Shown in pieces: positions 33,882-50,588 of a stretch of 64,000 nucleotides of DNA. The notes below the pieces were generated by a model. It ran no database searches, was not told the DNA's origin, and saw only the letters and a list, made by a program, of their open reading frames with translations. A program made the position numbers and the translations under genes. The DNA lies in assembly GCA_021849505.1 (NCBI GenBank), contig JAJZSW010000001.1:1-64000 (forward strand), given 5' to 3'. This DNA is from Pseudomonadota bacterium. GTDB lineage: Bacteria > Pseudomonadota > Gammaproteobacteria > Burkholderiales > Rhodocyclaceae. The stretch's first letter is position 1, and each line of letters begins with the position of its first letter.

Positions 33882-35240
33882 ATGAATTCAAACCTCAAGC
33901 TGCCGCCCCATTCTATCGAAGCCGAGCAGTCGCTGATCGGCGGCCTGCTGCTCGACAACAGCGCCTGGGACCGCATTGCCGACATCGTCAGCGAAGCGGA
34001 CTTCTACCGCGATGACCACCGGCGCATCTTCGCGCACATCCGCAAGCTTGTCGAAACCGGCCGTCCCGCCGACGTGGTGACGGTCTACGAGTCGATCGAG
34101 CATGCCAACCAGGCCGAGCAGACCGGCGGCTTGGCTTACCTTGGCGAAATGGCAAATGCAGTTGTGTCGACACGCAATATAAGAAGCCATGCTCAGATTG
34201 TGCGTGAGAAGACAATCGAGCGACAAGCACTAACGGCGATCGAGGACTTCCAGGGCAGAGGCAACTTCACTGCGCGGGCCCACAAGCTTTCTCAAGTCAT
34301 AACATCTCTTGCGACCGAGGCTGCGGAGCGCGGCTTGCCTGCATCGCGGAAATTCAGCGAAATCGCTGCAGCGCCAGCCATCGATTTCGACTACGCTCTG
34401 CCGGGCCTGCGTACTGGGAACGTTGGCGTCTTTGCTGGCTACGGTGGTGTCGGCAAAGGCTTCCTAGGCCTCGCACTGTCAATCGATGTTGCCCTCGGCC
34501 GAGGCAAGCTGACCGGCTTGCCGCTCTTAAAAGCTGGCAAGGCGGTTTTTGTCAGCATCGAAGACGATCAGGAGGCGCTGGACGCGCGGCTGCAAGCGTA
34601 CAGTCGGCACCTTGATGGTTCCGACCGTGCCGCGCTGGATGAGCGCCTGAGCGTCACGAGCGTCTATGGTTTGCCCGACTGGCAACTACTGAAGAGTGAT
34701 GAGCGTGGTGCACTGCATCAGAACGTCGCTGCAACCAATGCGATCGTCAGGGCGGCGCATGGCGCGCGCTTACTGATCATCGACACGGCGCGGAAGTTCT
34801 TCACCTTCGACGAAAACAAGAGCGACGAGGCATCGTTCACGCTCATGATTTGCGACCAGATCGCGCGAGAATCGGGCGCGGCCGTGCTGCTGGTACATCA
34901 CCTCTCAAAGCCGGCCGGCGACAGCAAAGATGAATTGCCAACAATTTTCTCGATCCGTGGGTCTTCGGCGCTCGTTGCTGATGCACGCTGGGCCGCCATC
35001 CTGGCAACGCCCCCATGCAAATTCGCAGAAGACAAGGGCATTGCCATCGACCGTAAGCGCTGGCGCGTGCTCGATGTCGGTAAGGTCAACCACGGCGGAG
35101 AGCCGGAAATGGCCCTGTTCCACCAGGACGAGCGCGGCGCGCTTGTGGCCGTACCGTGGCCCGCCGCTAGCCAGCGGCGAGAACCCAAGGCGACCGGGTC
35201 TGGCAAGTTTGGCCTGCGACCAGTCGCTACAGGAGGTTGA
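33882..35240 (+). CDS. Chimeric replicative helicase: host-DnaB N-terminal domain fused to IncQ RepA-like RecA/AAA_25 ATPase
   Basis: Residues LKLPPHSIEAEQSLIGGLLLDNSAWDRIADIVSEADFYRDDHRRIFAHIRKLVETGRPADVVTVYESIEHANQAEQTGGLAYLGE match host DnaB; C-terminal DYALPGLRTGNVGVFAGYGGVGKG, VFVSIEDDQEALDARL, RLLIIDTARKFFTFDENKSD, AAVLLVHHLSKP, RGSSALVADARW resemble RSF1010 RepA. Confidence 0.88.
   Translation: MNSNLKLPPHSIEAEQSLIGGLLLDNSAWDRIADIVSEADFYRDDHRRIFAHIRKLVETGRPADVVTVYESIEHANQAEQTGGLAYLGEMANAVVSTRNIRSHAQIVREKTIERQALTAIEDFQGRGNFTARAHKLSQVITSLATEAAERGLPASRKFSEIAAAPAIDFDYALPGLRTGNVGVFAGYGGVGKGFLGLALSIDVALGRGKLTGLPLLKAGKAVFVSIEDDQEALDARLQAYSRHLDGSDRAALDERLSVTSVYGLPDWQLLKSDERGALHQNVAATNAIVRAAHGARLLIIDTARKFFTFDENKSDEASFTLMICDQIARESGAAVLLVHHLSKPAGDSKDELPTIFSIRGSSALVADARWAAILATPPCKFAEDKGIAIDRKRWRVLDVGKVNHGGEPEMALFHQDERGALVAVPWPAASQRREPKATGSGKFGLRPVATGG
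33894..34160 (+). repeat. 267-bp direct repeat of host dnaB 5' region (partner 54953-55219)
   Basis: Gapless alignment by eye, 12 mismatches. Confidence 0.95.
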
Positions 35241-36039
35241 CATGCAGAAAAGAATAAAACTGCACCAGCACGTTGATGTAAGCACTGCCGCCCAGTGTCG
35301 AATCCCCATTTTCCAACCAACGCGCCGACCTAGATATATCAAGGGCGTCGAGGTATCGACGGGGTATGGTCGGGCAGTGATCGATGGAAAAATCGGCCAG
35401 CAGCATCGAGATTTCATCGAGTGCTGCAGGCTGACGGCACTTGAGCAGGGGCTGGATGGTGTGAACAGGTACTGCTGCATTGTCGACCCAAACAAGTTAC
35501 GTACTGCAATGAGTGCGGGAAAACGCACTAGCGAAGGCAAGACTGCGAGAGTCTGCTGGCTGCAACTCAAAGACATTGCCGAGGACTTGCGCCGCTGTGA
35601 AATTAGTGACGTCGAAATTTATTCTCGCCCCGGCTGGGGAGTAGTGACTGCGGGCATCCTTGATTCAGTCACATTCAAAGGGGTTGGTATTGTTGAGGGT
35701 AAAACTGGCCATGGCTGCCAGGTTGGGGAACGCGAGTTGTGGAAGGTCCCTTTTAGTGAGGCATGGACGAGCTTGATCGGTGTAGATTTGCCGGTCAGCT
35801 ACCGTGGGCAACTACAGTCAATCATCAAGCTTCGCCACGGCGTCAGCCAGGCGGTCGCACGCCTGATGCTTTCCCACTCGCCCGGCGCCACTTACAGCAT
35901 CAATGAGGCCTTGGCTTTTGTTGGTGCGGCCAGCATCTCTACCCGCCGCCACCGCCGCGGCGAGTTGCTTGCAGACGCCGATGCCCTGGCCGAAATGGGT
36001 ATCCTCATCGCGGGGGAGATGCTGGTGGCGGAAGCATAA
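35241..36039 (+). CDS. RepC-like replication initiator (IncQ-type, tentative)
   Basis: LQLKDIAEDLRR...KVPFSEAWTSLIGVDLPVSYRGQLQSIIKLRHGVSQAVARLMLSHSPGATYSINEALAFVGA...RRHRRGELLADADALAEMGILI follows the layout of RSF1010 RepC (paired winged-helix); immediately downstream of RepA-like gene. Confidence 0.55.
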
Positions 36040-36067
36040 TCCCGGCAGGCGGAAGCATAATCCCGGC
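36027..36067 (+). repeat. Two tandem 20-bp repeats (21-bp period) across the stop codon of the RepC-like gene
   Basis: GGCGGAAGCATAATCCCGGC at 36027-36046 and 36048-36067. Confidence 0.9.
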
Positions 36068-36127
36068 CCTATAGGCTTATAGGCCTAATAGGCATAGGCG
36101 GCGCCGCCCCGCCTTGAGGGTGGGCGG

Positions 36128-36571
36128 CTAGTGGAGTTTCTCAGTGGAATTCGGTTGCTGTGGTGTTACCAAAATGCGTAGAGCCATTCCAACTAGCTCT
36201 TCTCTCTCCGTTCTTGCCTTTACCTTGAGAATCGTTTCACCGTCAATCTGAAACGGCGCAAGAAAGAATGCCATCTGGGCAACCATAAACTTTGAACCGC
36301 TGCCAGGAATATCCTCGAGGTTTGGTGGTGTTGGAAGTGGGCCGGTAGTTAGCAACTCGGAGTCGTCCTCGCCCTTTAAAACCCGAACCTCAAGCTCCTT
36401 GAACGGGTCCGCGAAGTCTGTGACGACTTTTACTGCAATACTGAGCTTAGTGAGCACAACCGGCGCTGCCTGAACATGCAACTCGCCAGAGTAAACGCCC
36501 ATGTAGGACAGCTTATTTCCTACCTCCTCGCGAATGTCATCGCAGTAAATTACTTCAATATGCCGAGTCAT
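36128..36571 (-). CDS. Conserved hypothetical protein (DUF6941-like, tentative)
   Basis: MTRHIEVIYCDDIREEVGNKLSYMGVYSGELHV...; overlaps the start of the downstream-oriented XRE gene. Confidence 0.5.
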   Translation of the reverse strand: MTRHIEVIYCDDIREEVGNKLSYMGVYSGELHVQAAPVVLTKLSIAVKVVTDFADPFKELEVRVLKGEDDSELLTTGPLPTPPNLEDIPGSGSKFMVAQMAFFLAPFQIDGETILKVKARTEREELVGMALRILVTPQQPNSTEKLH

Positions 36572-37083
36572 GCGATTTTCTCTTGCGTGTTCTTAAAGGC
36601 TTCCGCGAGTTGGTCGCGGCTTACCCCGAAGATTTCGACAAGCCGCTCAAATGTTGAGTGAAATATGTCACTACGCTTGCCGGATTCGATCATCGAGTAG
36701 CTTGACTGTGAGTTGCCGAGTAAATCGGCAACTTGAGCTTGTGAAAGACCAGACCTAAGCCGCAAGGAGCTCAAGGTTATCTTTTGCTCAGTCTCTTCAA
36801 ACTGAGACGCCAATCGCTTGCGCGCCCGTGCCAATGCCTCGGCGCGGCGGGGATTAGCCTCGCTTTTCTGCACGACTTCGCCAATCTCTGTGTAGCCGGC
36901 GGGAATGGGTGCATGTATTACCTGCTCTACGATGGCGATCACATTTTCCGCTTTGGAGCCTGGATTCAGCAGGGCATAGGATGATCCATACCGCTTAATA
37001 GCGGGGGATGTCGAGATCGTCGTAGGCTGCGAGGATTTTTTGGGAGCGAGGGTGGTTGAGGTCATAGTCGAATTCCCGATCAA
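36568..37083 (-). CDS. XRE-family HTH antitoxin
   Basis: LSSLRLRSGLSQAQVADLLGNSQSSYSMIESGKRSDIFHSTFERLVEIFGVS. Confidence 0.75.
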   Translation of the reverse strand: MIGNSTMTSTTLAPKKSSQPTTISTSPAIKRYGSSYALLNPGSKAENVIAIVEQVIHAPIPAGYTEIGEVVQKSEANPRRAEALARARKRLASQFEETEQKITLSSLRLRSGLSQAQVADLLGNSQSSYSMIESGKRSDIFHSTFERLVEIFGVSRDQLAEAFKNTQEKIA

Positions 37084-37423
37084 GTATCCCTAGAACGTAG
37101 TAGCGAAGTTCTCCAGGGTGGAAGGCATAGACGATGCGGTACTTAGAGGCAGCGCTCTCTATCCATAAGAGCTTAAGCCGCCATAAGTTGTACTTGCTTT
37201 TCTTTGTGGCTTCCCACTCGGTTACGTTGAAAGGAACATCTTCATATCTCACGTAGCCTTTGCGCGTGAGGCAATCGAGAGTGTCTTGGTTGTTTCTAGC
37301 TTCGTCAAGAAACACCTCAATATCCGCCGCCGCGTCCTCATCAACCTCATAAATGAGATCCAGGTCGGCCTCGGCATCCTCATGCAGGACCAACGAGAAA
37401 GTACGATTCGGAAAGTATCTCAT
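36995..37423 (-). CDS. RelE/ParE-like toxin
   Basis: FSLVLHEDAEADLDLIYEVDEDAAADIEVFLDEA...LWRLKLLWIESAASKYRIVYAFHPGELRYYVLGILDREFDYD; precedes XRE gene on the same strand. Confidence 0.7.
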   Translation of the reverse strand: MRYFPNRTFSLVLHEDAEADLDLIYEVDEDAAADIEVFLDEARNNQDTLDCLTRKGYVRYEDVPFNVTEWEATKKSKYNLWRLKLLWIESAASKYRIVYAFHPGELRYYVLGILDREFDYDLNHPRSQKILAAYDDLDIPRY

Positions 37424-37532
37424 ATCTTTGAAGGTATAACAAGGTGCTTCTAATGCGTAAGCATACGGTCAATCCCCCTTGTTACCAAGCGAATTTCTCC
37501 GTCGTGGACGCACTTCCCGCCGTCTCTAAGGT

Positions 37533-37700
37533 AATTCCCTAGGGAATTAGGGGCGCTTGCGCCGCCCGTTTGGCATGCCAAACAAAAAATCGCGCCGGGG
37601 GCTGGCTTGCAGCCAGCCGGCCCAGCCTGCGGCTGGGGACAGAAGCCAACCAGCCGCCTGCAAGCAGGCGGAAAAGACGCGGGCTTTTTGGCTCGCCTGC
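37533..37700. repeat. Cluster of perfect palindromes
   Basis: AATTCCCTAGGGAATT (37533-37548), GTTTGGCATGCCAAAC (37568-37583), GCTGGCTTGCAGCCAGC, CCGCCTGCAAGCAGGCGG. Confidence 0.85.
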
Positions 37701-38038
37701 GGCGTGCCAGCCCGCGCCGTGGTGGTGAAGGCGCGTGGATGCTGCCCATCCTTTCTCTGTTTAGCTCTTCAGAGCCGCTCATCGCTGCTCGATCGCTCGC
37801 CAGCGGCGGGCTTAGACCGGGCGCCGCGCGCCCTGCATTGAGTCACGCCAGCCGGCGTGCCTGCGCCTCATCCTCGCCTGCGGCTGCGGTAATGCTCGGC
37901 CCGGCCCTGCGGGCTGCCCGTCTGTCATGCCTCATTGCTCCAGCCCGAAACCCCGCTGGCGCCCTGCGGGGCGCGCTCTCCGCTGCTCTTCGTGAAGCGG
38001 CTCCGAAGAGCAGAACAAAACAGCGAAAGGAGAAAGTC

Positions 38039-38524
38039 ATGGCAGCAACCACCATCACCACCACCAACGACGCGGGGCGCTGCCCCACACCCCGGAAGCT
38101 CACCAAAGAGCAGATTTCGGAACCCCAAGACATCTTTGAAATCTTTGGCGAACCAATCCATACCTATACCCGCCAGCAGGCGATCGACGACGGTTTTTTG
38201 ATCGACGTTTCTTCCATGGCCAATGAAGCGGGGATCGTTTTTCCAGTGGCAATGACAAGGGCGGCGTGGGCGGACTGCGTGGAATGGACAGATGCGGACA
38301 GCAAGCGCCAGACCTACCAGGACGAGGCAGGCCGACTCTGGGACGTTCTCTGGATGCTGAAGCTCGCAGCGCGCCGCGGTGGATCCGAAATCCGGTTCCA
38401 GCTCTACCGCGTGCCGCGTGGTGGCCGAGGCATCAAGCCGCGCCTGGCAGTGCTCAAGGCGATCTGCGGGCCTGGCGATGCCGGCGAGCCGGTCATCACG
38501 ATCTGCATGCCTGACGAAGATTGA
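38039..38524 (+). CDS. DUF6573-like plasmid/ICE protein
   Basis: IFGEPIHTYTRQQAIDDGFLIDVSSMANEAGIVFPVAMTRAAWADCVEWTDADSKRQTYQDEAGRLWDVLWM. Confidence 0.7.
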   Translation: MAATTITTTNDAGRCPTPRKLTKEQISEPQDIFEIFGEPIHTYTRQQAIDDGFLIDVSSMANEAGIVFPVAMTRAAWADCVEWTDADSKRQTYQDEAGRLWDVLWMLKLAARRGGSEIRFQLYRVPRGGRGIKPRLAVLKAICGPGDAGEPVITICMPDED

Positions 38525-38574
38525 CCGCAGGCCTGCATTTATCACAGACGAATTTGCACACGAGGCAAGAGATT

Positions 38575-39207
38575 ATGAGCTACAGACACCGCACCGAAGG
38601 CGACCGCGCGAAGGACTCCGCAGCTGAGATAAGCCGCACATCAAGCACCCTGCGAAAGCTGGCGGTAGTGCTTGAAGGCTTAATCGAGAGCGATCGACGG
38701 AAGTTGCTCGACGCTGCTGCAATCCTTGCAGCAGCTGGTCGTGAAAAAAAGGCATCCGCAAAGAAGCTCAAGGATGCCGAGATCGCTATCGAAAAGGCTT
38801 CCGAAAAAGCAGAAGCCGAGGCCGGCGCCATCCTCGATGCCTGGCCGCAAAGTGACCTGCCAGACCAGATTGCTCTTTGCCTTGCCTGGAGCGACCGCTG
38901 GATCTTTGAAGGTGAGGATCTGCTGCGTGAGGCCCTGAAGGGCTACACCGGTTACAACGGCCAGCACTACCCGGCGACCCGCAGGAACCTGGAGTCGGTG
39001 ATCAATGAAGCCCGACGCGCCCTGCAGCGCGAGGCGGCCAAACGTGCCAGCCGTAAGGGGCAACCGGTAGCCGAATTCCTGGGCACCGTGCGCGAGGCGG
39101 CGGAGGCAGCCAGGCAAAGCGACAAATGCCGGGAACTTGTCCAGGCCTGGCGCGTTGCGCTGGTGGCCGAACAGATCACCGAAGCGAACAAAGGGGGAAT
39201 GAAATGA
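38575..39207 (+). CDS. Hypothetical coiled-coil protein of element
   Basis: ORF in tra-region operon, helical composition. Confidence 0.5.
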   Translation: MSYRHRTEGDRAKDSAAEISRTSSTLRKLAVVLEGLIESDRRKLLDAAAILAAAGREKKASAKKLKDAEIAIEKASEKAEAEAGAILDAWPQSDLPDQIALCLAWSDRWIFEGEDLLREALKGYTGYNGQHYPATRRNLESVINEARRALQREAAKRASRKGQPVAEFLGTVREAAEAARQSDKCRELVQAWRVALVAEQITEANKGGMK

Positions 39208-39530
39208 AAATCGAAGGTGGTTTCTGGCAAAACTTCAAAGCAGCCCTTGGCCTCGGCCTGGGCGGAGGCCTCGGCGCCGGCTTCGGCTGGCGCGTCGGGC
39301 AGTGGCTGGGCGATCTCTTCATCCGCCTGATGAAGTGGATCGGCATCCTCGCGATCGGTGCCGGTGCGAGCTGGTATGCCGGCGTAGGCAACCAGAAGCC
39401 GCCCGAGCAGATCCAGCGCGAGGGCAAGGAGGCGCGGGCTCATCTCGAGAAAACCAACCCTGAGATGTTGAAGTTCGCCGACAAATACATCGCTGCCCAG
39501 AAAGAAAAGCAAGGAGCCGGCCGTGACTGA
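39204..39530 (+). CDS. Small glycine-rich membrane protein
   Basis: ALGLGLGGGLGAGFGWRVGQWLGDLFIRLMKWIGILAIGAGASW; ATGA overlap with upstream ORF. Confidence 0.55.
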   Translation: MKIEGGFWQNFKAALGLGLGGGLGAGFGWRVGQWLGDLFIRLMKWIGILAIGAGASWYAGVGNQKPPEQIQREGKEARAHLEKTNPEMLKFADKYIAAQKEKQGAGRD

Positions 39531-39867
39531 CATCGCCCTGCTCAACCGTACTTATTTTCAATGCCTGCGGGTCGCGGCCGTGCGATCCGTGCCCAAGGCC
39601 TGCACGGGTTTCGGCGTCCACAAGGAAATCGCAGAGGCCGTCGCCGCCATGACCATGGAAGACATCAAGCGGCTTTGCCTGCCCGGCCTCGTGCTCTTCG
39701 ACTTGAAGCTCACCCCGGCGCAATTCAAGGCCTTGCTCAAGGCGCCCGGACATGCCCAGCGCCAGGTGATGGCGATGCTGGCAGCCACGGAGGCGGAGAA
39801 GATGGCCGCGACCCCGCATCTCAATAGTAAGGGGCGACGTGCCCCGGCAAAAACAAGGAGCAAATAA
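39523..39867 (+). CDS. Possible FlhD-like regulator (remote)
   Basis: LNRTYFQCLRVAAVRSVPKACTGFGVHKEIAEAVAAMTMEDIKRLCLPGLVLFDLKLTPAQFKALL resembles the FlhD pattern of helix, FG/LG(I/V)xxExAxxxAxLT and I/V-KLxxxxxLxxxF/L. Confidence 0.4.
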   Translation: MTDIALLNRTYFQCLRVAAVRSVPKACTGFGVHKEIAEAVAAMTMEDIKRLCLPGLVLFDLKLTPAQFKALLKAPGHAQRQVMAMLAATEAEKMAATPHLNSKGRRAPAKTRSK

Positions 39868-40763
39868 TGGACTTCAAAGCATTTTTCAAAGAACAGATGC
39901 GCCCCATGTCCGCCGAGGACAAGGCGCGGCACGCCGGCTATTCGGATCTTGTTGCCAAGACGTTCCGCCGCTTGATCGGCGCGGCGGTATTTCTGCTGCT
40001 GCTCGTCGTGGTGCTGCAGACCGTTATCGGCACCGCCCAAGCCGGCGGCGGTGGCGGTATGACTGGCGGCGCCACCGAGTTCACCCAGATCAAGAACAAC
40101 GTGGAAATGTCGCTCCAGACGGTCGAGAGCAAGCTACAGACGTTCGAGCAAATCGAGCAGACCTACCTGAGCCGGCTGCAGCAGTTGAAGCAATCCATCG
40201 GTGAATACACCGCGCCCTTCCAGCAAACGATGGCCACCTGGCAGCGCGTGCGTGACGTGCAGACCCGCCTGGGCAATCTGCAATACAACCTCGGCAACAT
40301 GAAAGACATGATGGACGCCCGGTACCGTGAATTCGCGGCGTCGCCGCTGACTTTTCTTGAATGGCAGGCGCGCGAACTGCGATACATCCAGCGGAACGAT
40401 GCCACCGCCCGGGCGAAGCTCGAAGCCAATCGCCAAGTGATCGAAAGCACCGGGGACAGCCTGACCTCATTGAAGCGCGCGGCCGAAGGTCTGGACGCCT
40501 CGACGGGCACCCACCAGGCGACGCGGATGCTCGGCCCGATGCTGACCACCATCGGCGGGGACATCAACAAGCTGATCACCATTACCGCCATCAGTAATGA
40601 AAACGCGGCCGAGCAGAAGCACGTCGAGGCGGCGAAGGAGGAGGCGAAGCTGGCCGACTACGCGAAGTGGAAAGCCGAGCAGGACAAGATCAACGCGGCG
40701 CAGAAAGCAGAGTTCGAGAGGATGCAGCAAGGCTGGAAGCAATACCGCGGGGGCGCTCGGTAA
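39867..40763 (+). CDS. VirB5/TrbJ-like conjugal transfer protein
   Basis: N-terminal TM, GGATEFTQIKNNVEMSLQTVESKLQTFEQIEQTYLSRLQQLKQ; precedes VirB6/TrbL-like gene. Confidence 0.72.
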   Translation: MDFKAFFKEQMRPMSAEDKARHAGYSDLVAKTFRRLIGAAVFLLLLVVVLQTVIGTAQAGGGGGMTGGATEFTQIKNNVEMSLQTVESKLQTFEQIEQTYLSRLQQLKQSIGEYTAPFQQTMATWQRVRDVQTRLGNLQYNLGNMKDMMDARYREFAASPLTFLEWQARELRYIQRNDATARAKLEANRQVIESTGDSLTSLKRAAEGLDASTGTHQATRMLGPMLTTIGGDINKLITITAISNENAAEQKHVEAAKEEAKLADYAKWKAEQDKINAAQKAEFERMQQGWKQYRGGAR

Positions 40764-41737
40764 TGGAAGCGACCGCACTTTTCAACCAGGTCCTCGCGGC
40801 CATCACGGCCCACGGGGCGGCAATGACGCCGCGGCTAGTGCCCTTCGGTACTCAGCTGCTGTTTTACTTTGGGGTGATCGTGATCAGCTGGAGAGTGATT
40901 ACCGCAGTGCTAGCCGACACAGACATCCGCGGGATCCTGGTGAAGCTACTGCCTCTCTCGATCGTCCTCGGGGTAGCAAGTTGGCTCATTAAAGACCTCG
41001 ACTCGCATGCCGAGGCTTTTGTAAGTGGCTTCGACTGGGTCGCCATCACGGTGACCGGCGCTGCTCCAGGCAGCTCACCCCTCGACGCGACGATGGGCAG
41101 CCTTGGGCGGGTCGCGAACAGCCTCTGGCTCAGCATGGGCAGCTCGGGAGATACGCCCCCGGACTGGATCGATACTATAAAAAATACACTGAGCGGGGGA
41201 GCGGCATTCTGGCTGAAGGTTTTTACGCTTGCAATCATGATCATCGTGGCCGCCATCACAGCCGCTATCTACGTGATGAGCCAGGTCCTGGTCGGGGTCG
41301 GCATCGCCCTTGCGCCTGTTTGCATTCCGTTCATCGCACTGCCCAAGCTGAACTTCGTTTTTGAAGGCTGGTTGAAGTTCGTCTGGACGGCGGCAGTCAT
41401 GCGATTGGTCGGGCAGGTGATGTTGAGCTTCGGCGCCGCGCTGACCGATTCTTTGCTCACGCTTGACCGCGTGATCATGCAAGCCGGCCAGGATCCTCGC
41501 ACGCTGAATTTGATGGCTTCGATCGCGGTTCTGTTCGTTGCCATCGTTCAACTCATCCTCGCCACTCAGATCCCCTCGATCGCCCAGGCGCTCACAAGCG
41601 GCGGCGTTGGCGGCGCGCTCGACACAAGCCCGGTTTCTAAAGCTGCTGGCAAAGGACTGGCTGCGGCAAGAAGCGCCGGCGACGCAGGCAAGGCGGGTGT
41701 GAAAAAAACGATCGATGTATTCCGGAAACCCAAATAA
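40763..41737 (+). CDS. VirB6/TrbL-like conjugal transfer membrane protein
   Basis: Multi-TM; YVMSQVLVGVGIALAPVCIPFIALPKLNFVFEGWLKFVWTAAVMRLVGQVM typical TrbL/VirB6 core. Confidence 0.8.
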   Translation: MEATALFNQVLAAITAHGAAMTPRLVPFGTQLLFYFGVIVISWRVITAVLADTDIRGILVKLLPLSIVLGVASWLIKDLDSHAEAFVSGFDWVAITVTGAAPGSSPLDATMGSLGRVANSLWLSMGSSGDTPPDWIDTIKNTLSGGAAFWLKVFTLAIMIIVAAITAAIYVMSQVLVGVGIALAPVCIPFIALPKLNFVFEGWLKFVWTAAVMRLVGQVMLSFGAALTDSLLTLDRVIMQAGQDPRTLNLMASIAVLFVAIVQLILATQIPSIAQALTSGGVGGALDTSPVSKAAGKGLAAARSAGDAGKAGVKKTIDVFRKPK

Positions 41738-41755
41738 CCAACCAAGGAGATTTTC

Positions 41756-42280
41756 ATGAAATTTCCAGTTCCAGAGTACCAGCCCGGCTTTTTCGAAAAA
41801 GCGTTGATCATGGTCTTGCCGGAAATCGCAAAACACATTGACCCGGCCTGCCGAAATTCTTACTTCAACTACACGCCGTTTTCCGACGAACTGCCGGCAG
41901 TTGAAGTCGCAGGCGAACAGCGGCAGGCCTACGGCAAGATCGAGGGCATGGGGCGCGTCTATGACCTTTATTGCAACCAGACTGGAATCATCGAGGTCAC
42001 CTTCGCGCACGGAAAATTTGCCAGCCGGGTTGCGGAAGGTTGCGTGCAACATGAATGGCTTGCTGCCCGGGAAATTGCAGCGCCCATCATCTGGGCGCCA
42101 TCGCAAAAAATCTGCGACGAGTTTCTCGCGAATTCGCTTTTCGTCGCCCTGCATCCTTTCAAAAAAAATGGCCAGAGCGTCAGGCCGGCCCTCAAGAAAA
42201 ACCAACTCGTCAGGTACCGGATTCTCACACTCAACGAGGCAGGGACCGAAGGCGTCGCCGTTGCACTCGCGCCGTCCTGA
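41756..42280 (+). CDS. Hypothetical protein of element
   Basis: ORF with RBS-like AAGGAG upstream (41744). Confidence 0.5.
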   Translation: MKFPVPEYQPGFFEKALIMVLPEIAKHIDPACRNSYFNYTPFSDELPAVEVAGEQRQAYGKIEGMGRVYDLYCNQTGIIEVTFAHGKFASRVAEGCVQHEWLAAREIAAPIIWAPSQKICDEFLANSLFVALHPFKKNGQSVRPALKKNQLVRYRILTLNEAGTEGVAVALAPS

Positions 42281-42304
42281 GAATTGCTCTCATTCTGCAA
42301 AAGA

Positions 42305-42364
42305 TGGCGATTCACGGCAATTGACGGCGATTCGCGGCGGTTCGTGGCGATTGATGGCGATTGA
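42305..42364 (+). repeat. Array of six exact 10-bp-period repeats (YGGCRRTTSR)
   Basis: TGGCGATTCA CGGCAATTGA CGGCGATTCG CGGCGGTTCG TGGCGATTGA TGGCGATTGA. Confidence 0.93.
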
Positions 42365-42386
42365 GCTTTCCGCACCATTCCCGGCT

Positions 42387-42466
42387 TGGCAATCGATGAC
42401 GATTCACGGCAATTGACGGCGGTTGATGGCGATTGGTGGCGGTTCGTGGCGGTTCGTGGCGATTGA
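42387..42466 (+). repeat. Second array of eight 10-bp-period repeats
   Basis: TGGCAATCGA TGACGATTCA CGGCAATTGA CGGCGGTTGA TGGCGATTGG TGGCGGTTCG TGGCGGTTCG TGGCGATTGA. Confidence 0.93.
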
Positions 42467-42514
42467 CGCGGACATCGCGGGGCGGGGGAGGGGCAGCCTC
42501 TCCCCCACAGTCAG

Positions 42515-42602
42515 ATGCCCGGCCGAGCCGGGCATGAAACACCTTGCCCACCTGGCGGTGGGCGCCCAAAGCAAGAAGGGTCAGACACTTTGTGTCTGAC
42601 CC
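42515..42602. repeat. Three consecutive perfect inverted repeats
   Basis: ATGCCCGGC-CGA-GCCGGGCAT (42515-42535); GCCCACC-TGGC-GGTGGGC (42546-42563); GGGTCAGACAC-TTT-GTGTCTGACCC (42578-42602). Confidence 0.9.
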
Positions 42603-42803
42603 ACAGACCCCACGCACCGGCGGTGCTGACGGCGCGGCGCTGTCGCGCCGGAAACCCTCGCAGCCTCAACCGCTTATGCGTATGACAACCAGCCGGGAAA
42701 TCTGCAGGGTCGCGTCATACACATTTTTCTGCGGTTTGTCTGACAGCTTGGCCGAGGTCGGCCATCTGTTTATAGACCGACTTGGTCGCAAACAAGGAGA
42801 TCA

Positions 42804-42995
42804 ATGATGAAAACCCCTACCCAGATTCAGACCCAGATCGAGAAGCTCCAGCAGCAGCTGGCCCAGGCAAAGGCGAAGGAACGCGAGCAGCGCATCGGTC
42901 GCTTTCTGTCCATCCTGGACAAGTCCGGCCTCTCCGATGATGAAGCGGCCTCTGCCATCGAGGCCGCCGGGAAACTGAAGAAAGGCGAGCAATGA
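42804..42995 (+). CDS. Small TraD/mobilization-accessory-like coiled-coil protein
   Basis: MMKTPTQIQTQIEKLQQQLAQAKAKEREQRIGRFLSILDKSGLSDDEAASAIEAAGKLKKGEQ; first gene of mobilization operon. Confidence 0.5.
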   Translation: MMKTPTQIQTQIEKLQQQLAQAKAKEREQRIGRFLSILDKSGLSDDEAASAIEAAGKLKKGEQ

Positions 42996-43291
42996 ACAAG
43001 CCAAATCCTACGAATCCTGAGGAAGTGATCGAGGTGGAAATGAAGATTCGCATCGACCGTGTGGGGCTGGAAATCTTCGATTTCTATGCCGAGGAGGCGG
43101 GCGTATCTCGTGCTGAGCTGGTCAGCCGCTCGATCAATTTGTTCCTCAGGCAGCAAACACTAATTATCGATTTCGATGAGCTCATGGAAGGGATCGAATA
43201 CGAACTCTCCAAGGCGGTCAGGCAAGCCGAGCGCCTGCCCTGCCTGCACTCGGCGCGGCGCCGCTCCCACCTGCGGAGAAATCAAAAATGA
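42992..43291 (+). CDS. Hypothetical protein, mobilization operon
   Basis: ATGA overlaps with both neighbours; MKIRIDRVGLEIFDFYAEEAGVSRAELVSRSI suggests RHH-like fold. Confidence 0.5.
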   Translation: MNKPNPTNPEEVIEVEMKIRIDRVGLEIFDFYAEEAGVSRAELVSRSINLFLRQQTLIIDFDELMEGIEYELSKAVRQAERLPCLHSARRRSHLRRNQK

Positions 43292-43545
43292 GCAGGGCGA
43301 TCACGATTCGATTTTCGAAAGAAGAAGCGGCGTGGGTCGAGCGCGAAGCCGCGCGCCGGAACCTCACGGCGAGCGAAGTTTTGCGGCAGGCCTTGCGACA
43401 CGAAATCGCAAATGTCGTCACGATCGATCGTCTCAATTCACTGGAAGCCCGCATGGAAGAAATGCGCGAAATCTTCGCGCGTGACTTTGAGGCGATGGGG
43501 CGGATCAATCTCAAGATTCTGAAAACACTGGAGGCAAAATGCTAA
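43288..43545 (+). CDS. Ribbon-helix-helix relaxosome accessory protein (TrwA position)
   Basis: MSRAITIRFSKEEAAWVEREAARRNLTASEVLRQALRHEI, immediately upstream of TrwB-like gene. Confidence 0.7.
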   Translation: MSRAITIRFSKEEAAWVEREAARRNLTASEVLRQALRHEIANVVTIDRLNSLEARMEEMREIFARDFEAMGRINLKILKTLEAKC

Positions 43546-45389
43546 CGAAATCATGGGCGGAGAACTGGAAGTGGCGTCTCAAAGCCGGCGTCGCCTTGGC
43601 GGTGATCGCCGCCTTTTCGACTACCGCCCTCACCGCAAAAAACTACAACGACGGTGAGGCGCAGGGCTGGTATTTCCACTGGCTCACATCGAGCGCTTTT
43701 GTGAAATCCGGCTGGACGGAGGGCCGCGCTTTCAACGGCCAGACGCACGGCGATTTCCTTGCGCACTTCCACGCCCGATATCCGCTGGCGGCAGAGGCCT
43801 TTACAGCCAAGACCCCTAAAATCTTCAAGACTTATCCGCTGATGGCGGGAGCCGGCACGCTGGCGCTTTTTCTTGGCGCTTCGATTGCCTTGGGCTTCCG
43901 AGGGCGCAAGCAGGATGACGAGCACCGGCGCGGCGCGCAGGTTGTTGACGCCAAGCAATTGCGCAAAGCCCTTCGCAAGGAACCGGCGGACATCACCCTT
44001 GGCGGCGTGCCCTGGCCGAGAAGGGACGAGACGAGGCATTTGCTGCTGGCCGGATCGATCGGCAGTGGTAAGACCGTCGCCCTCAGGCAAATCATGAAAT
44101 CGATCCGCGCCCGCGGCGATCGCGCAATCGTGGTCGATGCCGGCGGCGCGTTTTTGCAGCTTTTCGCCCGGCAGGGCGATGCGCTGCTGAACCCCTTCGA
44201 CAAACGATCGAGACAATGGAGCCCGTTTGCTGAGGGCGGAAAGCCGTGGGAGATCGAGGCCATGGCGCGCAGCTTTTATCCCGCCGCCGAGGGCACGGAT
44301 GGGGTCTTCAGCGATCTTGGCATGCAGGTTTTTTCCGGCTTGCTGGAGCAGTGCCGGGCGCATGGCATCGCGACGAATCATGCGCTCGCCAGCCTCTGTT
44401 CAGCGGATGCCGAGACCGTGTTCAGTGTGCTGCAGGGCCATCCCGCCAAGGGATTAATGAACTCCGGCTCATCGGATGCCGAGGCGATCGTCAAGTTGGC
44501 CGTCAATACGCTGCAGGGCCATCCCGCCGCGGCGTTAATGAACTCTGGCGCATCGGACACCGTGGGCAGCATTCTCACCAATCTCAACCGTGGCGGTCGG
44601 GCGCTGCGTTATCTTCACCCTGACGCCGGCGAGAAAGCATTCAGCGTCGGTCAGTGGGTTCGAGAGGGGGAGGGCTGGCTGTTTCTCTCGTTCCCGATCG
44701 GGCAGCGCGAGGCGCTCAAGCAGATCATCGCCGCGCAGCTGGACATCGTTGCCCGGACCGTTCTCGACCTGCCGGCGGACGAGTCGCGACGCGTCTGGCT
44801 CATCGTCGATGAGTTGCCGCTCCTGGGCAAGATTTCAAGTATCGTCGAATTCCTGACCAACGGCAGGCGCTTCGGCGGCTGCGCGATCCTCGGCATCCAG
44901 GCCGTCTCCCAGCTGCGGGAAGTCTATGGGCGCGACGGCGCGCAGACCATGCTTTCCTGCCTGCCGTCGCAGCTCATCCTGCGCCAGCCGGATCCGGAAA
45001 CCGCTGAGGCGATGAGCAAGGCGATCGGCGATGCCGAAGTGCTGCGCCAGAACCGCAGCGAGGGCAAGACGGAGCACGGCCTGAGCAAGAATCAGCAGGA
45101 GCAGGTCACGAATTCGCGGCGGGTGATGGCCAGCGAGCTGGTCACGCTGCCGGACCTGCAAGGCTATCTGCGCCTGATTGGCGACCGGCCCGTTGCCAGG
45201 ATCAAGCTCGAGATCCCGGACACGCCGGACAGCGGCAATCCGGCCTTCGTGCCGCGCGAGATGCCCGCGCGCCGGCCGTTTGCCTTGCCCGACCATCTGT
45301 TGAAGGGAAAAGCGGCGAAATCCGAGCCGAAGCCCGCCCCCGAACCCACCAAGCCAGCCGACGAAAACCTCGACTGGCGCAACGTCTAA
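43539..45389 (+). CDS. TrwB/TraD-type T4SS coupling protein
   Basis: Two N-terminal TMs, LLLAGSIGSGKTVALRQIM Walker A, VWLIVDELPLLGKI Walker B, LPDLQGYLRLIGDRPVARIKLEI. Confidence 0.93.
   Translation: MLTKSWAENWKWRLKAGVALAVIAAFSTTALTAKNYNDGEAQGWYFHWLTSSAFVKSGWTEGRAFNGQTHGDFLAHFHARYPLAAEAFTAKTPKIFKTYPLMAGAGTLALFLGASIALGFRGRKQDDEHRRGAQVVDAKQLRKALRKEPADITLGGVPWPRRDETRHLLLAGSIGSGKTVALRQIMKSIRARGDRAIVVDAGGAFLQLFARQGDALLNPFDKRSRQWSPFAEGGKPWEIEAMARSFYPAAEGTDGVFSDLGMQVFSGLLEQCRAHGIATNHALASLCSADAETVFSVLQGHPAKGLMNSGSSDAEAIVKLAVNTLQGHPAAALMNSGASDTVGSILTNLNRGGRALRYLHPDAGEKAFSVGQWVREGEGWLFLSFPIGQREALKQIIAAQLDIVARTVLDLPADESRRVWLIVDELPLLGKISSIVEFLTNGRRFGGCAILGIQAVSQLREVYGRDGAQTMLSCLPSQLILRQPDPETAEAMSKAIGDAEVLRQNRSEGKTEHGLSKNQQEQVTNSRRVMASELVTLPDLQGYLRLIGDRPVARIKLEIPDTPDSGNPAFVPREMPARRPFALPDHLLKGKAAKSEPKPAPEPTKPADENLDWRNV
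44430..44592 (+). repeat. Internal 81-bp (27-aa) tandem duplication in coupling protein gene
   Basis: CTGCAGGGCCATCCCGCC at 44430 and 44511; LQGHPAKGLMNSGSSDAEAIVKLAVNT / LQGHPAAALMNSGASDTVGSILTNLNR. Confidence 0.85.
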
Positions 45390-45398
45390 GGATCAATT

Positions 45399-48122
45399 AT
45401 GGTCGCAAGTCTTTCCGCAATCCAATCGGCTGGCGCCGCCGCCAGCTATTTCTCGCAGGTTGATGATTACTACCGAGGCACGGAACACGCCCCGACCGCC
45501 TGGCAGGGCAAGGCGGCGGAGGCCTTGGGCCTCACCGGCGCCGTCGACGCCGAGGCCTTTCAGAACCTGCTCGCCGGCAAGCTGCCAGACGGCCAGATCC
45601 TTGGCCGCGTCGGGCAGGACGGTCAGATCGAGCACCGACCGGGCTGGGATCTGACCTTCTCTGCGCCCAAGAGCGTCTCACTCATGGCCCTGGTGCAAGG
45701 CGACGAGCGCCTGATCGACGCGCACGAGCAGGCAGTAAAGGAGACACTGGCCTGGATCGAGGCCGAGGCCGCCGTGACGCGCGTCAAGGAGCGTGGCGGC
45801 GAGGCCAAGATCGTCCAGACCGGAAATCTTGCCGTGGCGAGCTTCCGGCATGCCACCAGCCGCGAGCAGCAGCCCCAGCTGCACACGCATAACGTCATTC
45901 TGAATCTGACCCGGCGCGAGGATGGCCAATGGCGCAGCCTGGAGTCGCGGACGTTCTACCGGCTGCAGCTCGAGGCCGGCGAGCGCTACCGCGCCGCGCT
46001 GGCCTACCAGTGCGCGCAGCTCGGCTACCGCATCGAGCGAACCAAGGTGGCCGAGATGGTCGGCTTCGAGCTGGCCGACGTGCCCAAGGAGCTGATGGAG
46101 CACTTCTCCAAGCGCTCCGCCCAGATCGAGGCGGCGCTGGCAGCTCGCGGCAAAACGCTCGAGACTGCAACCCCCGACGAGATCGAGATGGCGAAGCTTT
46201 CGACCCGCAAGGCGAAGGAAGCCGTCGACCATGCCGCGCTGCGCGGCGGCTGGCAGGAACAAGCCAAGGCGCTGGGCGTGGATCTGAACCTGATCCGCAG
46301 CCAGGCATCACTGGAATCGCTCAACCTGGACGGGCAGGAGGCGGCAGGGCGGGCCGTCGCCGAGGCGGCCGAGCACCTCAGCGAGCGTGACGCCCGTTTC
46401 TCCAGCGATGCACTGTTCCAGGAGGCGCGGCGCCTGGCGATGGGATCCGCCCATGATGAGCAGATCGAGGCGGCCATCCAGCAGGCCGCGCTGTCCGGCG
46501 ATCTCGTCGAGCGGCAGGCCAGGAGCTACGACTTCCGCACCGGGCAGATCATCGAGGGCGCGGGCTTCGCGACGCGCGAGGCGGTCGAGATCGAGCAACG
46601 GATACTCGACTCGGCCGCGCGTGCCCAGGGCGCCGTCCAGTCGCTTTCGGTTGATACGGCCGCCGTCCTCGTTCGCCGGCGGGTGGAAACCGGCTATGCC
46701 TTCAACGAGGGGCAGGCGAAGGCGGTCGACGGCATCCTGACCAGCAAAGACCGGATCAACCTGGTGCAGGGTTTCGCCGGCACCGCCAAGACGAATTCCG
46801 TCCTGGCAGCCGTCGCGGCCGAGGCCCGCGCCAAGGGCGAAACCATCGTCGCGATCGCGCCGACTGCCAGTGCGGCCGAGACGCTGGGCAAGGCCATCGG
46901 CGGCGATGGCCTGACCGTGGCCAGGCACATCAGCCAGAAGGAACGCGCCGGCGGACTCTGGATCGTGGACGAGGCTTCGATGGTCTCCGCCCGCGACATG
47001 GCCAGGCTGCTCCAGCAGGCCGAGAAAGCCAACGCCCGCGTGGTGCTGGTCGGCGACGCCAAGCAGCTGGGATCCGTCGAGGCCGGCGCGGCCTTCCGCC
47101 AGCTGCAAGGCGAATCCAGCCTCAAGACGCACGTCCTGGACGAGATCGTGCGCCAGGACAACAAGGCGACGCGGGCAGCCGTCTACGCGGCGATTCATGG
47201 AAACGCCACGGCCGCCCTCGAAAAGCTCCAGCAAGGCGGCGGATCCGTCCGCGAGCTGGCGACGCGCGAAGAGCGCATCGCGGCGATCGCAGACGACTAC
47301 TGCCGCCAAGACCCGGAGGATCAGGCCAAGAGCATTGTGATCGCGCCCGGCAAGGATGATCGCCTACTGCTCAACGAGGCGATCCGCGCGCGGCTTCGAG
47401 AGAACGGCGTTATTTCCGGCCTGGATGCCAAGACAGAAACCCTCACGGCCAAGGATCTGACGAGGACACAGGCAAAGCGTGCCGAGAACTACCAGGAGGG
47501 CGACGTGCTCAAGGCAGGGCGGGCCTACAAGAAATTCGGCCTGGAGAAGGGCGATTACCTGACCGTCAAAAGCGTGGATGCCGCGCGCAATGTGATCGTG
47601 GCCACGGCCGGGGATGGCCGGACCGTCGAGATCAATCCGCGCGTCAACAAGCAATTCCAGACCTTCGAGGCCGAGACCCGCGAGCTGCAGCAGGGCGATC
47701 GCATTGTCTTCAAGCAGAACGATGCATTGCTGGACCGGAAGAACGGCCAGCAGGCAACGGTAGAGTCTGTCCATCCAGACGCTGGCTTAGCAGTGATCCG
47801 CACCGAGAACGGCGCGCTGCAGGCGCTCGATCTGCTTGACCGCCAGCATGGGCACTGGACGCATGCCTACGCCCAGACCGCCCACGAGGCGCAGGGCCGG
47901 ACGTGCGAGCGGGTCTTCATTCATGCCGAGTCTTCACGGCTCAACCTGACCAACCAGCAGAGCTTCTACGTCGCCATCAGCCGGGCGAAGGAGCAGGCGC
48001 ACGTCTACACCGACAGCGCCAAGGATCTCGGGATGGCGGTTGAGCAGCGCAGCGGTCAGAAGCACCAGGCGCTGCAGACAAGGTTTGAGCGCACCCAACA
48101 GCAGGCAGGGATGAGCCTTTAA
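45399..48122 (+). CDS. MOBF relaxase/helicase (TrwC/TraI family)
   Basis: N-terminal DYYRGTE catalytic Tyr pair, LTFSAPKSVSLMALV, QLHTHNVILNLT metal site, RecD-like GFAGTAKTNSVLAAV, VYVAISRAKEQAHVYTD (FYVAISRAK motif). Confidence 0.96.
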   Translation: MVASLSAIQSAGAAASYFSQVDDYYRGTEHAPTAWQGKAAEALGLTGAVDAEAFQNLLAGKLPDGQILGRVGQDGQIEHRPGWDLTFSAPKSVSLMALVQGDERLIDAHEQAVKETLAWIEAEAAVTRVKERGGEAKIVQTGNLAVASFRHATSREQQPQLHTHNVILNLTRREDGQWRSLESRTFYRLQLEAGERYRAALAYQCAQLGYRIERTKVAEMVGFELADVPKELMEHFSKRSAQIEAALAARGKTLETATPDEIEMAKLSTRKAKEAVDHAALRGGWQEQAKALGVDLNLIRSQASLESLNLDGQEAAGRAVAEAAEHLSERDARFSSDALFQEARRLAMGSAHDEQIEAAIQQAALSGDLVERQARSYDFRTGQIIEGAGFATREAVEIEQRILDSAARAQGAVQSLSVDTAAVLVRRRVETGYAFNEGQAKAVDGILTSKDRINLVQGFAGTAKTNSVLAAVAAEARAKGETIVAIAPTASAAETLGKAIGGDGLTVARHISQKERAGGLWIVDEASMVSARDMARLLQQAEKANARVVLVGDAKQLGSVEAGAAFRQLQGESSLKTHVLDEIVRQDNKATRAAVYAAIHGNATAALEKLQQGGGSVRELATREERIAAIADDYCRQDPEDQAKSIVIAPGKDDRLLLNEAIRARLRENGVISGLDAKTETLTAKDLTRTQAKRAENYQEGDVLKAGRAYKKFGLEKGDYLTVKSVDAARNVIVATAGDGRTVEINPRVNKQFQTFEAETRELQQGDRIVFKQNDALLDRKNGQQATVESVHPDAGLAVIRTENGALQALDLLDRQHGHWTHAYAQTAHEAQGRTCERVFIHAESSRLNLTNQQSFYVAISRAKEQAHVYTDSAKDLGMAVEQRSGQKHQALQTRFERTQQQAGMSL

Positions 48123-48142
48123 CGAGACAAGGAGCAAACGCA

Positions 48143-48517
48143 ATGTTGATCGATATCTGGGTTGGTGATGATCTGTACCTGATTGATAACGAGGCAGGGG
48201 AGGGTGAGACGCTGTCTCTTGAGCGAATCCTGGCGGCCGGCATTCGATCCCTGTACCCGGTCGCGGATGCAGATCGCGCGCGATGCGCGGTACAGATGTA
48301 TCGCGGACGGCTGGAAGAAGAGCGGCGGCGACGGGATCAGATTCAAGACGTGGTTCTGAGCTGCCGTGAGGATGCGGTCATGTTCGAGTCAACCGAAGGG
48401 TTTGTCCATCTAAAGCAGGTTGCTGCATACATCGACGCTGCAACGTCGTTGAAAGATCAGAAAACGACACCCTGCGCAGCAACTGTCTTGATGGATGGCT
48501 TGATCAAGGCGAGTTAG
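48143..48517 (+). CDS. Hypothetical protein of element
   Basis: ORF directly downstream of relaxase with RBS-like AAGGAG. Confidence 0.5.
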   Translation: MLIDIWVGDDLYLIDNEAGEGETLSLERILAAGIRSLYPVADADRARCAVQMYRGRLEEERRRRDQIQDVVLSCREDAVMFESTEGFVHLKQVAAYIDAATSLKDQKTTPCAATVLMDGLIKAS

Positions 48518-48572
48518 GCACTGCTCCCCCAGGGGCTTCCAGTAGGTCGAGAGTCTGGCCGCCCTGCGGCAT

Positions 48573-48605
48573 CTATAGGCAAGAGCAATCCGCTCTTGTC
48601 TATAG
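48573..48605 (+). promoter_or_regulatory. 14-bp-stem RNA hairpin immediately upstream of lipoprotein gene
   Basis: CTATAGGCAAGAGC-AATCC-GCTCTTGTCTATAG (one G.U in RNA); abuts AGGAG at 48604-48608. Confidence 0.7.
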
Positions 48606-48613
48606 GAGCCGAC

Positions 48614-49036
48614 ATGAAATTCAAAACCGCAGTATTGATCGTAACCCTTTCCACCGCTCCCTTGTTGGGCGGCTGCGCCGCAGGACTTGTCGTGCCTGCC
48701 ATGGCAGGCGTGAACTTGGCCAAGAACGGCCCCATTGCCATGAAGATCGAGGGCAAAGGCGATGGCATCACGGCATTCCGGCGTGCCGTGGTGGAGGCCG
48801 GCGGCACCGTGCCGCGCGCCGGCGACGGCTATGCCGAAGGCCAATTCTCCGCCAAGTCCGTTCGCGTCGAGCTGCAGCAGATCGAGCGCGGGCTGTGGGC
48901 TGTGGCAGTCACCACGACCGCGGCCAGGTCCTGGGACTTCGAGGATGGCATCGCCAAAGTCGCCGACGCCATCAGCGCCGGCATGGGCAAGGCCGGTTTC
49001 GTGACGAGCAGCCGCGAACGGACGAGCGGACTTTGA
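48614..49036 (+). CDS. Lipoprotein, paralogue of next gene
   Basis: MKFKTAVLIVTLSTAPLLGGCAAG lipobox; KIEGKGDGITAFRRAVVEAGGTV. Confidence 0.65.
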   Translation: MKFKTAVLIVTLSTAPLLGGCAAGLVVPAMAGVNLAKNGPIAMKIEGKGDGITAFRRAVVEAGGTVPRAGDGYAEGQFSAKSVRVELQQIERGLWAVAVTTTAARSWDFEDGIAKVADAISAGMGKAGFVTSSRERTSGL

Positions 49037-49104
49037 CCGCCCGCAACCATCTATCAGTAACCGGCGAAATCCTCGCCGGCCTCTTTAATCAAGAAAGGAA
49101 CCAC

Positions 49105-49494
49105 ATGAACTCAAAACTTCTCATCGCCATCGCCACCCTGGGTGCGCTTTCCGCGATGCCGGCCGCTGCGACGGCCGAGACCCCGAAACTCGATCCAATC
49201 ATGGTCAAGCTGCAGGGCCAGGGTGACGCGATCCCGGCATTCAAGCACTCAGTTGAAGCCGCAGGCGGCACCATGACCTATACCGGGTCGCGATCCGCGA
49301 TCGCTGGCTTCGGCGCGCGCCAGGTGGGGGCAAGCATCTCTATGCAGGGGGCCGGAAACTATGCCCTGCGCGTCATCGCCGACCGGGAAAAATCCCCCGG
49401 CGGCGATGACGACATCGCACAGATCGAGGCCGCCATCACTGACGGCATGACCAAGGCCGGATTCACTGCCCAGGAGCGTCGGCGCGGCGACTGA
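49105..49494 (+). CDS. Secreted protein, paralogue of previous gene
   Basis: Signal peptide MNSKLLIAIATLGALSAMPAAATAE; KLQGQGDAIPAFKHSVEAAGGTM...IAQIEAAITDGMTKAGF. Confidence 0.65.
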   Translation: MNSKLLIAIATLGALSAMPAAATAETPKLDPIMVKLQGQGDAIPAFKHSVEAAGGTMTYTGSRSAIAGFGARQVGASISMQGAGNYALRVIADREKSPGGDDDIAQIEAAITDGMTKAGFTAQERRRGD

Positions 49495-49559
49495 CCGCGC
49501 AGGGGCATCTATCAATAACCGGCGCAACCGCGCCGGCTCAACAACCGAAAGGAAACCAG

Positions 49560-49811
49560 ATGGAAAACGCAAGCACCGCCACCGAACGCCCGCCTCTCGA
49601 TTCCGAGACCCTCGCCAGGGTCAAGGAGGATCTGCGCAGCATCAAGAGCACCGATCCGCGCCTGACCGAATGGGAGCGCGATTTCATCAAGGAGCAGAAG
49701 GAGCGCTTCAAGAAGTGGGGCGATGAGACCTACCTGAGCGACAAGCAGATAGACATCATCCACAAGATCGCGGAGCGCATGAAGATCGAGGGCGAGGATC
49801 GCGGCGAATGA
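49560..49811 (+). CDS. Small hypothetical protein
   Basis: RBS-like GAAAGGAAACC upstream; ATGA overlap with next ORF. Confidence 0.5.
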   Translation: MENASTATERPPLDSETLARVKEDLRSIKSTDPRLTEWERDFIKEQKERFKKWGDETYLSDKQIDIIHKIAERMKIEGEDRGE

Positions 49812-49960
49812 ATACCGAAATCTCGCGCGATCGCGTCATCCTGGACCTGCGCACCCGCCTTGCTGCCGCCGAGAGATCGGCGTCGATCTGGAAGTGGATT
49901 ACGCTTGTTTTGCTCTTTGGTCCGGCCGTCCTGACGATCTTTCTGCTGGCACTGGGTTGA
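49808..49960 (+). CDS. Small single-TM protein (50 aa)
   Basis: MNTEISRDRVILDLRTRLAAAERSASIWKWITLVLLFGPAVLTIFLLALG; not in ORF track. Confidence 0.5.
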   Translation: MNTEISRDRVILDLRTRLAAAERSASIWKWITLVLLFGPAVLTIFLLALG

Positions 49961-49962
49961 CC

Positions 49963-50088
49963 ATGGCGACCGGGCAGCAGTGCGGCTCGTGCCTGCTGTT
50001 CTACACCAGGCTGGACGGGAAAACCGTCTGCCTGGTGGGGAAGCCAGTTCCTGTTGCTGGTCCTTGCCCTCGCCATCGGCCTCTTTAG
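49963..50088 (+). CDS. Cys-rich microprotein (41 aa)
   Basis: MATGQQCGSCLLFYTRLDGKTVCLVGKPVPVAGPCPRHRPL, four Cys; 2 bp after previous stop. Confidence 0.4.
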   Translation: MATGQQCGSCLLFYTRLDGKTVCLVGKPVPVAGPCPRHRPL

Positions 50089-50120
50089 CTGGAGAGGTTG
50101 TGATCTAAATTCAGAACCAT

Positions 50121-50312
50121 CTACCGCTTTTCTTCGCGAGGTGGCATTCCTAGCGCTTTCCGTGATCTGTCGCTTGCGGCACGCGTTTCTTCAATGTATT
50201 TGTCACGTATCTGCTGCTGTTTCGCGGTGAGTTCAGTCTCGCCGTTCGAGCATCCATTGAGTATGGAGGGCATGCCGACGATGGCGATGGCAAGTAGCGT
50301 TGTGGGTTTCAT
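50121..50312 (-). CDS. Small putative lipoprotein
   Basis: MKPTTLLAIAIVGMPSILNGCSNGE lipobox. Confidence 0.5.
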   Translation of the reverse strand: MKPTTLLAIAIVGMPSILNGCSNGETELTAKQQQIRDKYIEETRAASDRSRKALGMPPREEKR

Positions 50313-50375
50313 GAGTTCTCCAGTGTTACGCCGTTTGGCAGAGCGTCATGTTGGACTCAGTGATTGATGCCAAGA

Positions 50376-50588
50376 TTAGCGAGCATTTTGAGCCGCTAGA
50401 GCCTTCTCAATCTTTTTGTCAGTCTTGTATTGGCCTAGTGCATACACTGACCAAATAGCCGCAGGCAACCAACCAATTATGGTTATTTGAAGCAGTAAGC
50501 AAACGATGCCTGCAATAGGACGGCCAATGGTAAAGAACTGAAGCCAGGGTAGAAAAATTGCCAACATCAAACGCATGGTTGTCTCCAA
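50376..50588 (-). CDS. YqaE/Pmp3-family small membrane protein
   Basis: MLAIFLPWLQFFTIGRPIAGIVCLLLQITIIGWLPAAIWSVYAL. Confidence 0.65.
   Translation of the reverse strand: METTMRLMLAIFLPWLQFFTIGRPIAGIVCLLLQITIIGWLPAAIWSVYALGQYKTDKKIEKALAAQNAR

What the first reader, a model, noticed from the sequence alone, without database searches (positions are those of the whole stretch)
42305..42466. Two arrays (6 + 8 units) of exact 10-bp-period iterons, consensus YGGCRRTTSR
Seen: fourteen units with strict 10-bp spacing, separated by one 22-bp spacer, in noncoding DNA just upstream of the mobilization operon. A 10-bp period puts units on nearly the same helical face, suggesting cooperative protein binding, for example by the RHH proteins at 42992-43545 or by the RepC-like initiator. 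Units vary at purine/pyrimidine positions while the GGC..TT core is kept, which argues against a simple recent slippage expansion.
Basis: partly seen in the sequence, partly recalled or inferred. Interest (0 to 1): 0.66.

Follow-up and report, generated by a model that had tools for sequence, protein, structure and literature searches.

The report
Repeat array beside a transfer origin
Fourteen 10-base repeats lie just beyond the predicted DNA nick site of a small mobile element; they sit where plasmids R388 and R46 carry binding sites for a protein that balances inheritance against transfer, but this element lacks that protein, so a different one probably does the job.

Summary
In detail: 6 + 8 units, strict 10-bp period, 22-bp spacer, far above chance. 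The window carries a ~20.6-kb integrative element in tRNA-Arg with an IncQ-like replicon (DnaB-like RepA helicase, RepC) and a MOBF mobilisation operon. I located its nic site by homology to R388 (minus strand, GGTGCGTGGGGTCT^, between 42605 and 42604). The arrays lie 138-300 nt 3' of nic on the leading strand, where R388, R46 and pPL2 carry 11-bp-period repeats (StbA-bound in R388). Three related elements carry phased repeats in the same place with different unit sequences. RepC/oriV is unlikely: RepC relatives have 21-22-bp iterons directly after repC, and so does this element (36027-36067). No StbA, StbB or StbC homologue was found in the four elements. Among 14 MOBF oriTs examined, 7 have arrays: 3 carry stbAB and 4 carry an uncharacterised gene, orf174, that ends beside the array. 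The 7 without arrays carry neither, though several have a TrwA-like RHH protein. Best reading: an stbDR-like control site read by a non-StbA protein, orf174 first candidate. Binding is inferred, not shown.

The parts
42305..42364 (+). Array 1: six 10-bp units (YGGCRRTTSR)
42365..42386 (.). 22-bp spacer between the arrays
42387..42466 (+). Array 2: eight 10-bp units
42513..42602 (-). Strong hairpins between nic and the arrays (42515-42535, about 42545-42563, 42578-42602), on the leading strand
   Evidence: DNA fold of 42470-42610 minus strand, z = -5.3
42604..42626 (-). oriT nic region: hairpin GCACC-GCC-GGTGC, then GTGGGGTCT^GTGGG; predicted nic between 42605 and 42604 on the minus strand
   Evidence: same pattern TGCGTNNNGTNT^ as R388, R46, pPL2, L012, G015, G016
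41756..42280 (+). orf174: uncharacterised 174-aa protein whose gene ends 24 bp before array 1; present in all four elements of this family; candidate array-binding protein
42804..42995 (+). 63-aa TraC-like protein
42992..43291 (+). RHH1, RHH-like small protein; no counterpart between traC63 and RHH2 in G016
43288..43545 (+). RHH2, TrwA-like ribbon-helix-helix accessory protein
43539..45389 (+). TrwB-like coupling protein
   Evidence: PF10412, 1.9e-105
45399..48122 (+). TrwC-like MOBF relaxase-helicase
   Evidence: PF08751, 1.6e-90
36027..36067 (+). Two 21-bp repeats (GGCGGAAGCATAATCCCGGCA) at the 3' end of repC: probable oriV iterons, distinct from the decamer arrays
35233..36039 (+). RepC-like initiator
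31517..52161 (.). Integrative element bounded by a 17-bp repeat GACCTACCGCTTAGGAG (31517-31533 and 52145-52161, the latter inside tRNA-Arg)

Best explanation
The arrays are an stbDR-like control site in the leading region of a MOBF oriT. An element-encoded protein, most likely the orf174 product, is proposed to bind the 14 phased sites cooperatively and form a compact complex next to nic. That complex would hold the excised, replicating form of the element for stable inheritance and restrain or time its transfer, as StbA does on the R388 direct repeats. Shown here: the array, its place relative to the predicted nic, its counterparts in relatives, separate RepC-type iterons, and the absence of a detectable StbA homologue. 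Inferred: the nic itself (by homology), protein binding, which protein binds, and the effect on inheritance and transfer.
For: The nic pattern (TGCGTNNNGTNT^, with a hairpin before it in most) was found in the window, L012, G015, G016, R388, R46, pPL2 and five further MOBF plasmids. The arrays start 138 (window), 128 (L012), 82 (G016) and 317 (G015) nt 3' of nic, against roughly 94-127 nt for R388, 116 for R46 and 125 for pPL2. Phasing on the leading side: window z 13.3, G015 12.6, G016 4.5, R388 7.0, pPL2 7.0, R46 12.2; L012 has 3 block copies (50 of 60 matches between copies, against at most 32 in shuffles). The seven MOBF oriTs without an array (L046, L057, L127, pAOVO01, pMSMB0852, Denitratisoma pI, X. 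albilineans plasmid) carry neither StbA/StbB nor orf174 in the stretch held, whereas all seven with an array carry one or the other. L127, pAOVO01 and Denitratisoma pI have RHH2-like proteins but no array. L012 and G015 share unit types (GGTACAACT, GGGGCCATTGA) and are the most similar pair in orf174 (46% against 34-43%) and in RHH1. R388 stbDRs are two sets of five 9-bp repeats with 2-bp spacing, bound by StbA; they affect stability and transfer (PMC3098194).
Against: Only four elements are known, and the link between orf174 and the array is confounded by common descent. orf174 matches no family and its structure model is uninformative (pLDDT 41); no DNA-binding motif was recognised. In R388 stbA points away from oriT and the repeats surround its promoter; here orf174 points towards the array. 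A profile of the window units does not pick out the arrays of the relatives, so one protein family with one site preference is not shown. The lag-based statistic for L012 alone is weak (z 1.7).
Confidence: 0.55

Rival explanations
1. Relaxosome accessory site: the RHH proteins (TrwA-like RHH2, or RHH1) coat the arrays to bend oriT and help the relaxase nick.
For: RHH2 is present in all four elements; RHH proteins bind 10-11-bp direct repeats in other systems (ParR on parC, PMC9426499). RHH2 relatives belong with TrwA.
Against: RHH2-like proteins occur in L127, pAOVO01 and Denitratisoma pI, which have no array. G016 lacks RHH1 but has an array. In R388 the repeats are StbA's.
Confidence: 0.2
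2. Centromere (parC-like) of a true partition system with an RHH adaptor and a motor ATPase.
For: Two clusters of 10-bp direct repeats resemble parC of R1 and pB171 (PMC9426499).
Against: No StbB homologue was found and no ParM- or ParA-like gene was recognised in the element; an integrated element is inherited with the chromosome.
Confidence: 0.08
3. Replication iterons bound by RepC (oriV).
For: The element has RepA and RepC genes and the array is iteron-like.
Against: Every RepC relative examined has 21-22-bp iterons directly 3' of repC (pUL3AT, pSMBC31-5K, a Citrobacter plasmid, p49879.1 and .2, G017, G074, G015), and so does this element (36027-36067); G015 carries both that set and the oriT arrays.
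Confidence: 0.04
4. Operator for transcription of the mobilisation operon or another promoter.
For: stbDRs surround the stb promoter in R388.
Against: No sigma-70-like promoter found in 42200-42900; the mobilisation operon starts about 340 bp away, beyond strong hairpins.
Confidence: 0.08
5. Neutral tandem duplication without function.
For: Arrays 1 and 2 share unit order (from 42305 and from 42397), so they arose at least partly by duplication; unit sequences turn over between relatives.
Against: Place and helical phase are kept in four elements whose unit sequences differ.
Confidence: 0.05

Closest known systems
stbDRs of plasmid R388 (IncW), with the equivalent repeats of R46 (IncN) and pPL2
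   Same: Clustered helically phased direct repeats on the leading side of a MOBF oriT, about 100-130 nt or more 3' of nic, between the trwABC-like operon and a leading-region gene; strong hairpins lie between nic and repeats in R388 and here
   Different: 10-bp instead of 11-bp period, 6 + 8 instead of 5 + 5 units, different unit sequence, no StbA/StbB/StbC; the neighbouring gene (orf174) points towards the array
parC centromeres of R1 and pB171
   Same: Clusters of 10- or 11-bp direct repeats
   Different: No ParM/ParA motor recognised; located at oriT
IncQ-type oriV iterons (RepC)
   Same: Direct repeats on an element with RepC
   Different: Period 10 instead of 21-22 bp, 6.3 kb from repC; the iteron-like repeats lie beside repC

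Membership tests
StbA/stbDR system | Phased direct repeats in the leading region next to a MOBF oriT | tested here: met
StbA/stbDR system | stbABC operon adjacent | tested here: not met
   phmmer and profile searches found no StbA, StbB or StbC homologue in the four elements; StbA profile in own genome best E 0.31
StbA/stbDR system | StbA-type site (TTGCATCAT in R388) with 11-bp period | tested here: not met
   period 10, unit YGGCRRTTSR; unit sequence also varies among StbA plasmids (R46, pPL2)
StbA/stbDR system | Repeats bound by the cognate protein, with effect on stability and transfer | not testable with these tools
   needs EMSA and mating assays
IncQ-type oriV | 21-22-bp iterons directly 3' of repC | tested here: not met
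   the array is 6.3 kb away with period 10; 36027-36067 fits instead
ParMRC / parC | Cognate motor ATPase (ParM) | tested here: inconclusive
   none recognised among the ORFs examined; no dedicated ParM profile search was run
MOBF oriT | Hairpin followed by the nic sequence upstream of TrwA/TrwB/TrwC-like genes | tested here: met

The most novel reading that the evidence does not exclude
The arrays and orf174 form a segregation-versus-transfer control module unrelated to StbA, carried by integrative elements that replicate after excision; its binding sites drift quickly in sequence but keep their place and helical phase beside nic.
Probability: 0.25. Interest if true: 0.68.

Novelty: new variant of a known kind. 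Interest (0 to 1): 0.45.

Why it matters
It suggests that phased repeat arrays on the leading side of MOBF transfer origins are a recurring control feature that different DNA-binding proteins can serve, including on an integrative element with its own replicon. It also makes a precise test possible: whether such elements use an StbA-like brake on transfer without StbA.

Tried and rejected
RepC/oriV iterons. RNA or hairpin structure: the arrays do not fold better than shuffles on either strand (DNA parameters), and the one Rfam match is far below its gathering score. Coding sequence: 10-bp period, no ORF conservation seen. An earlier reading of nic near 42765 (CATCT^) was replaced by the R388-like nic at 42605/42604. 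A shared core RCNNYTNR seen across the four arrays was chosen after the fact; a profile built only from the window units does not recover it, so I do not rely on it. The GTACAAC likeness between R46 repeats and G015/L012 units may be chance, and the orientation relative to nic is opposite. Similar DNA: no match in plasmids to the arrays of the window, G015 or G016. The viral contigs decamer hits are short arrays whose settings I did not work out. orf174 relatives: none in plasmids, viral contigs or a class-wide draw of 331 genomes other than the window's own. The AF2 model of orf174 was unusable.

Full report
Observation. The array is as described: six units at 42305-42364, a 22-bp spacer, eight units at 42387-42466, period 10 throughout. 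Twelve of 14 units match YGGCRRTTSR; two differ at one position. No dinucleotide shuffle of the surrounding 14 kb comes near it. It is the only such array in its genome; 399 genomes drawn from the same family gave only isolated three-unit matches in 4 others.

Setting. The window holds an element of about 20.6 kb between a 17-bp repeat at 31517-31533 and its copy in the tRNA-Arg gene (52145-52161), with an integrase-like gene next to the left end. It carries a DnaB-like helicase and a RepC-like initiator, two type IV secretion parts (TrbJ/TrbL-like), orf174, the arrays, an oriT, a 63-aa TraC-like protein, two RHH-type proteins, a TrwB-like coupling protein and a TrwC-like MOBF relaxase.

The RepC hypothesis. 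RepC relatives in IncQ-like plasmids (pUL3AT, typed IncQ2; pSMBC31-5K; a Citrobacter plasmid; p49879.1 and .2) and in genomes G017, G074 and G015 all have 21-22-bp iterons directly 3' of repC. The window has two 21-bp repeats at the same spot, 36027-36067. G015 has both that set and separate arrays at oriT. The decamer arrays are therefore unlikely to be the RepC iterons.

Relatives. A genome scan and family and order searches gave three elements with the same gene order around oriT: L012/L126 (contig JAJZQI010000030.1, relaxase 64% identical), G015 contig 94 (64%) and G016 contig 41 (75%). All three have phased repeats between the end of orf174 and the oriT, but with other unit sequences: G015 alternates GGTACAACTCA and GGGGCCATTGA types (period 21, two arrays), G016 has 21-bp units around GGTGCAACTTCGAACGCTTGA, and L012 has three copies of a 63-nt block. 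Place and phase are kept; the unit sequence is not.

oriT. Aligning the upstream regions showed a conserved block that matches the R388 nic hairpin. On the minus strand the window reads GCACCGCCGGTGCGTGGGGTCT^GTGGG, against GCACCGAAAGGTGCGTATTGTCT^ATAG in R388. The nic pattern was found in 12 MOBF oriTs. The arrays lie on the leading side, 138-300 nt from nic, beyond strong hairpins, which is where R388, R46 and pPL2 have their 11-bp-period repeats.

Which protein? R388 StbA binds its repeats and affects both stability and transfer (PMC3098194). No StbA, StbB or StbC was found in the four elements. Across 14 oriTs, the 7 with arrays have StbA/StbB (3) or orf174 (4); the 7 without have neither in the stretch held, while L127, pAOVO01 and Denitratisoma pI do have RHH2-like proteins. 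pNY11312-NR was left out of the count because its modest signal (z 3.7) looks like coding sequence. G016 lacks RHH1. This makes orf174 the leading candidate, but the four elements share ancestry, orf174 has no known family, and its model failed.

Verdict. An stbDR-like array at a MOBF oriT, served by something other than StbA: a new variant of a known kind. Binding and effect remain to be tested.

Noticed in passing
33894-34160 and 54953-55219: About 90 codons near the start of the element's repA are 95.5% identical in DNA (255 of 267) to the host dnaB gene 20 kb away; the RepA relatives in G015 and G017 align only from residue ~158 on. The element seems to have captured the host DnaB N-terminal domain onto an IncQ-type helicase.
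   Followed up: partly
31517-31533 and 52145-52161: 17-bp attachment repeat marking the ends of the integrative element in tRNA-Arg (CCT).
   Followed up: partly
36568-37423: HTH antitoxin-like gene beside a possible RelE-like toxin gene on the minus strand, downstream of repC.
   Followed up: no
39867-41737: TrbJ/TrbL-like secretion parts without the rest of a type IV secretion system; the TrbJ-like protein has no match in plasmids.
   Followed up: no
L126:2244-2416: 22-23-bp iteron array (GGATACCGTCGCAGCGGTCAC) upstream in the L012 element, separate from its oriT repeats.
   Followed up: no
L129, L130, L131, L132, L133, L134 (viral contigs): Short decamer arrays of GGCRRTT type in six viral contigs; L130 and L134 carry TTGGCGGCAG-like runs after a gene end, L129 and L132 also carry an adjacent CGCTTCCGCTG 11-bp repeat run.
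   Followed up: no
L127:6736-6841: Direct and inverted TTTTGGAG repeats after a helicase-like gene in a more distant MOBF element.
   Followed up: no
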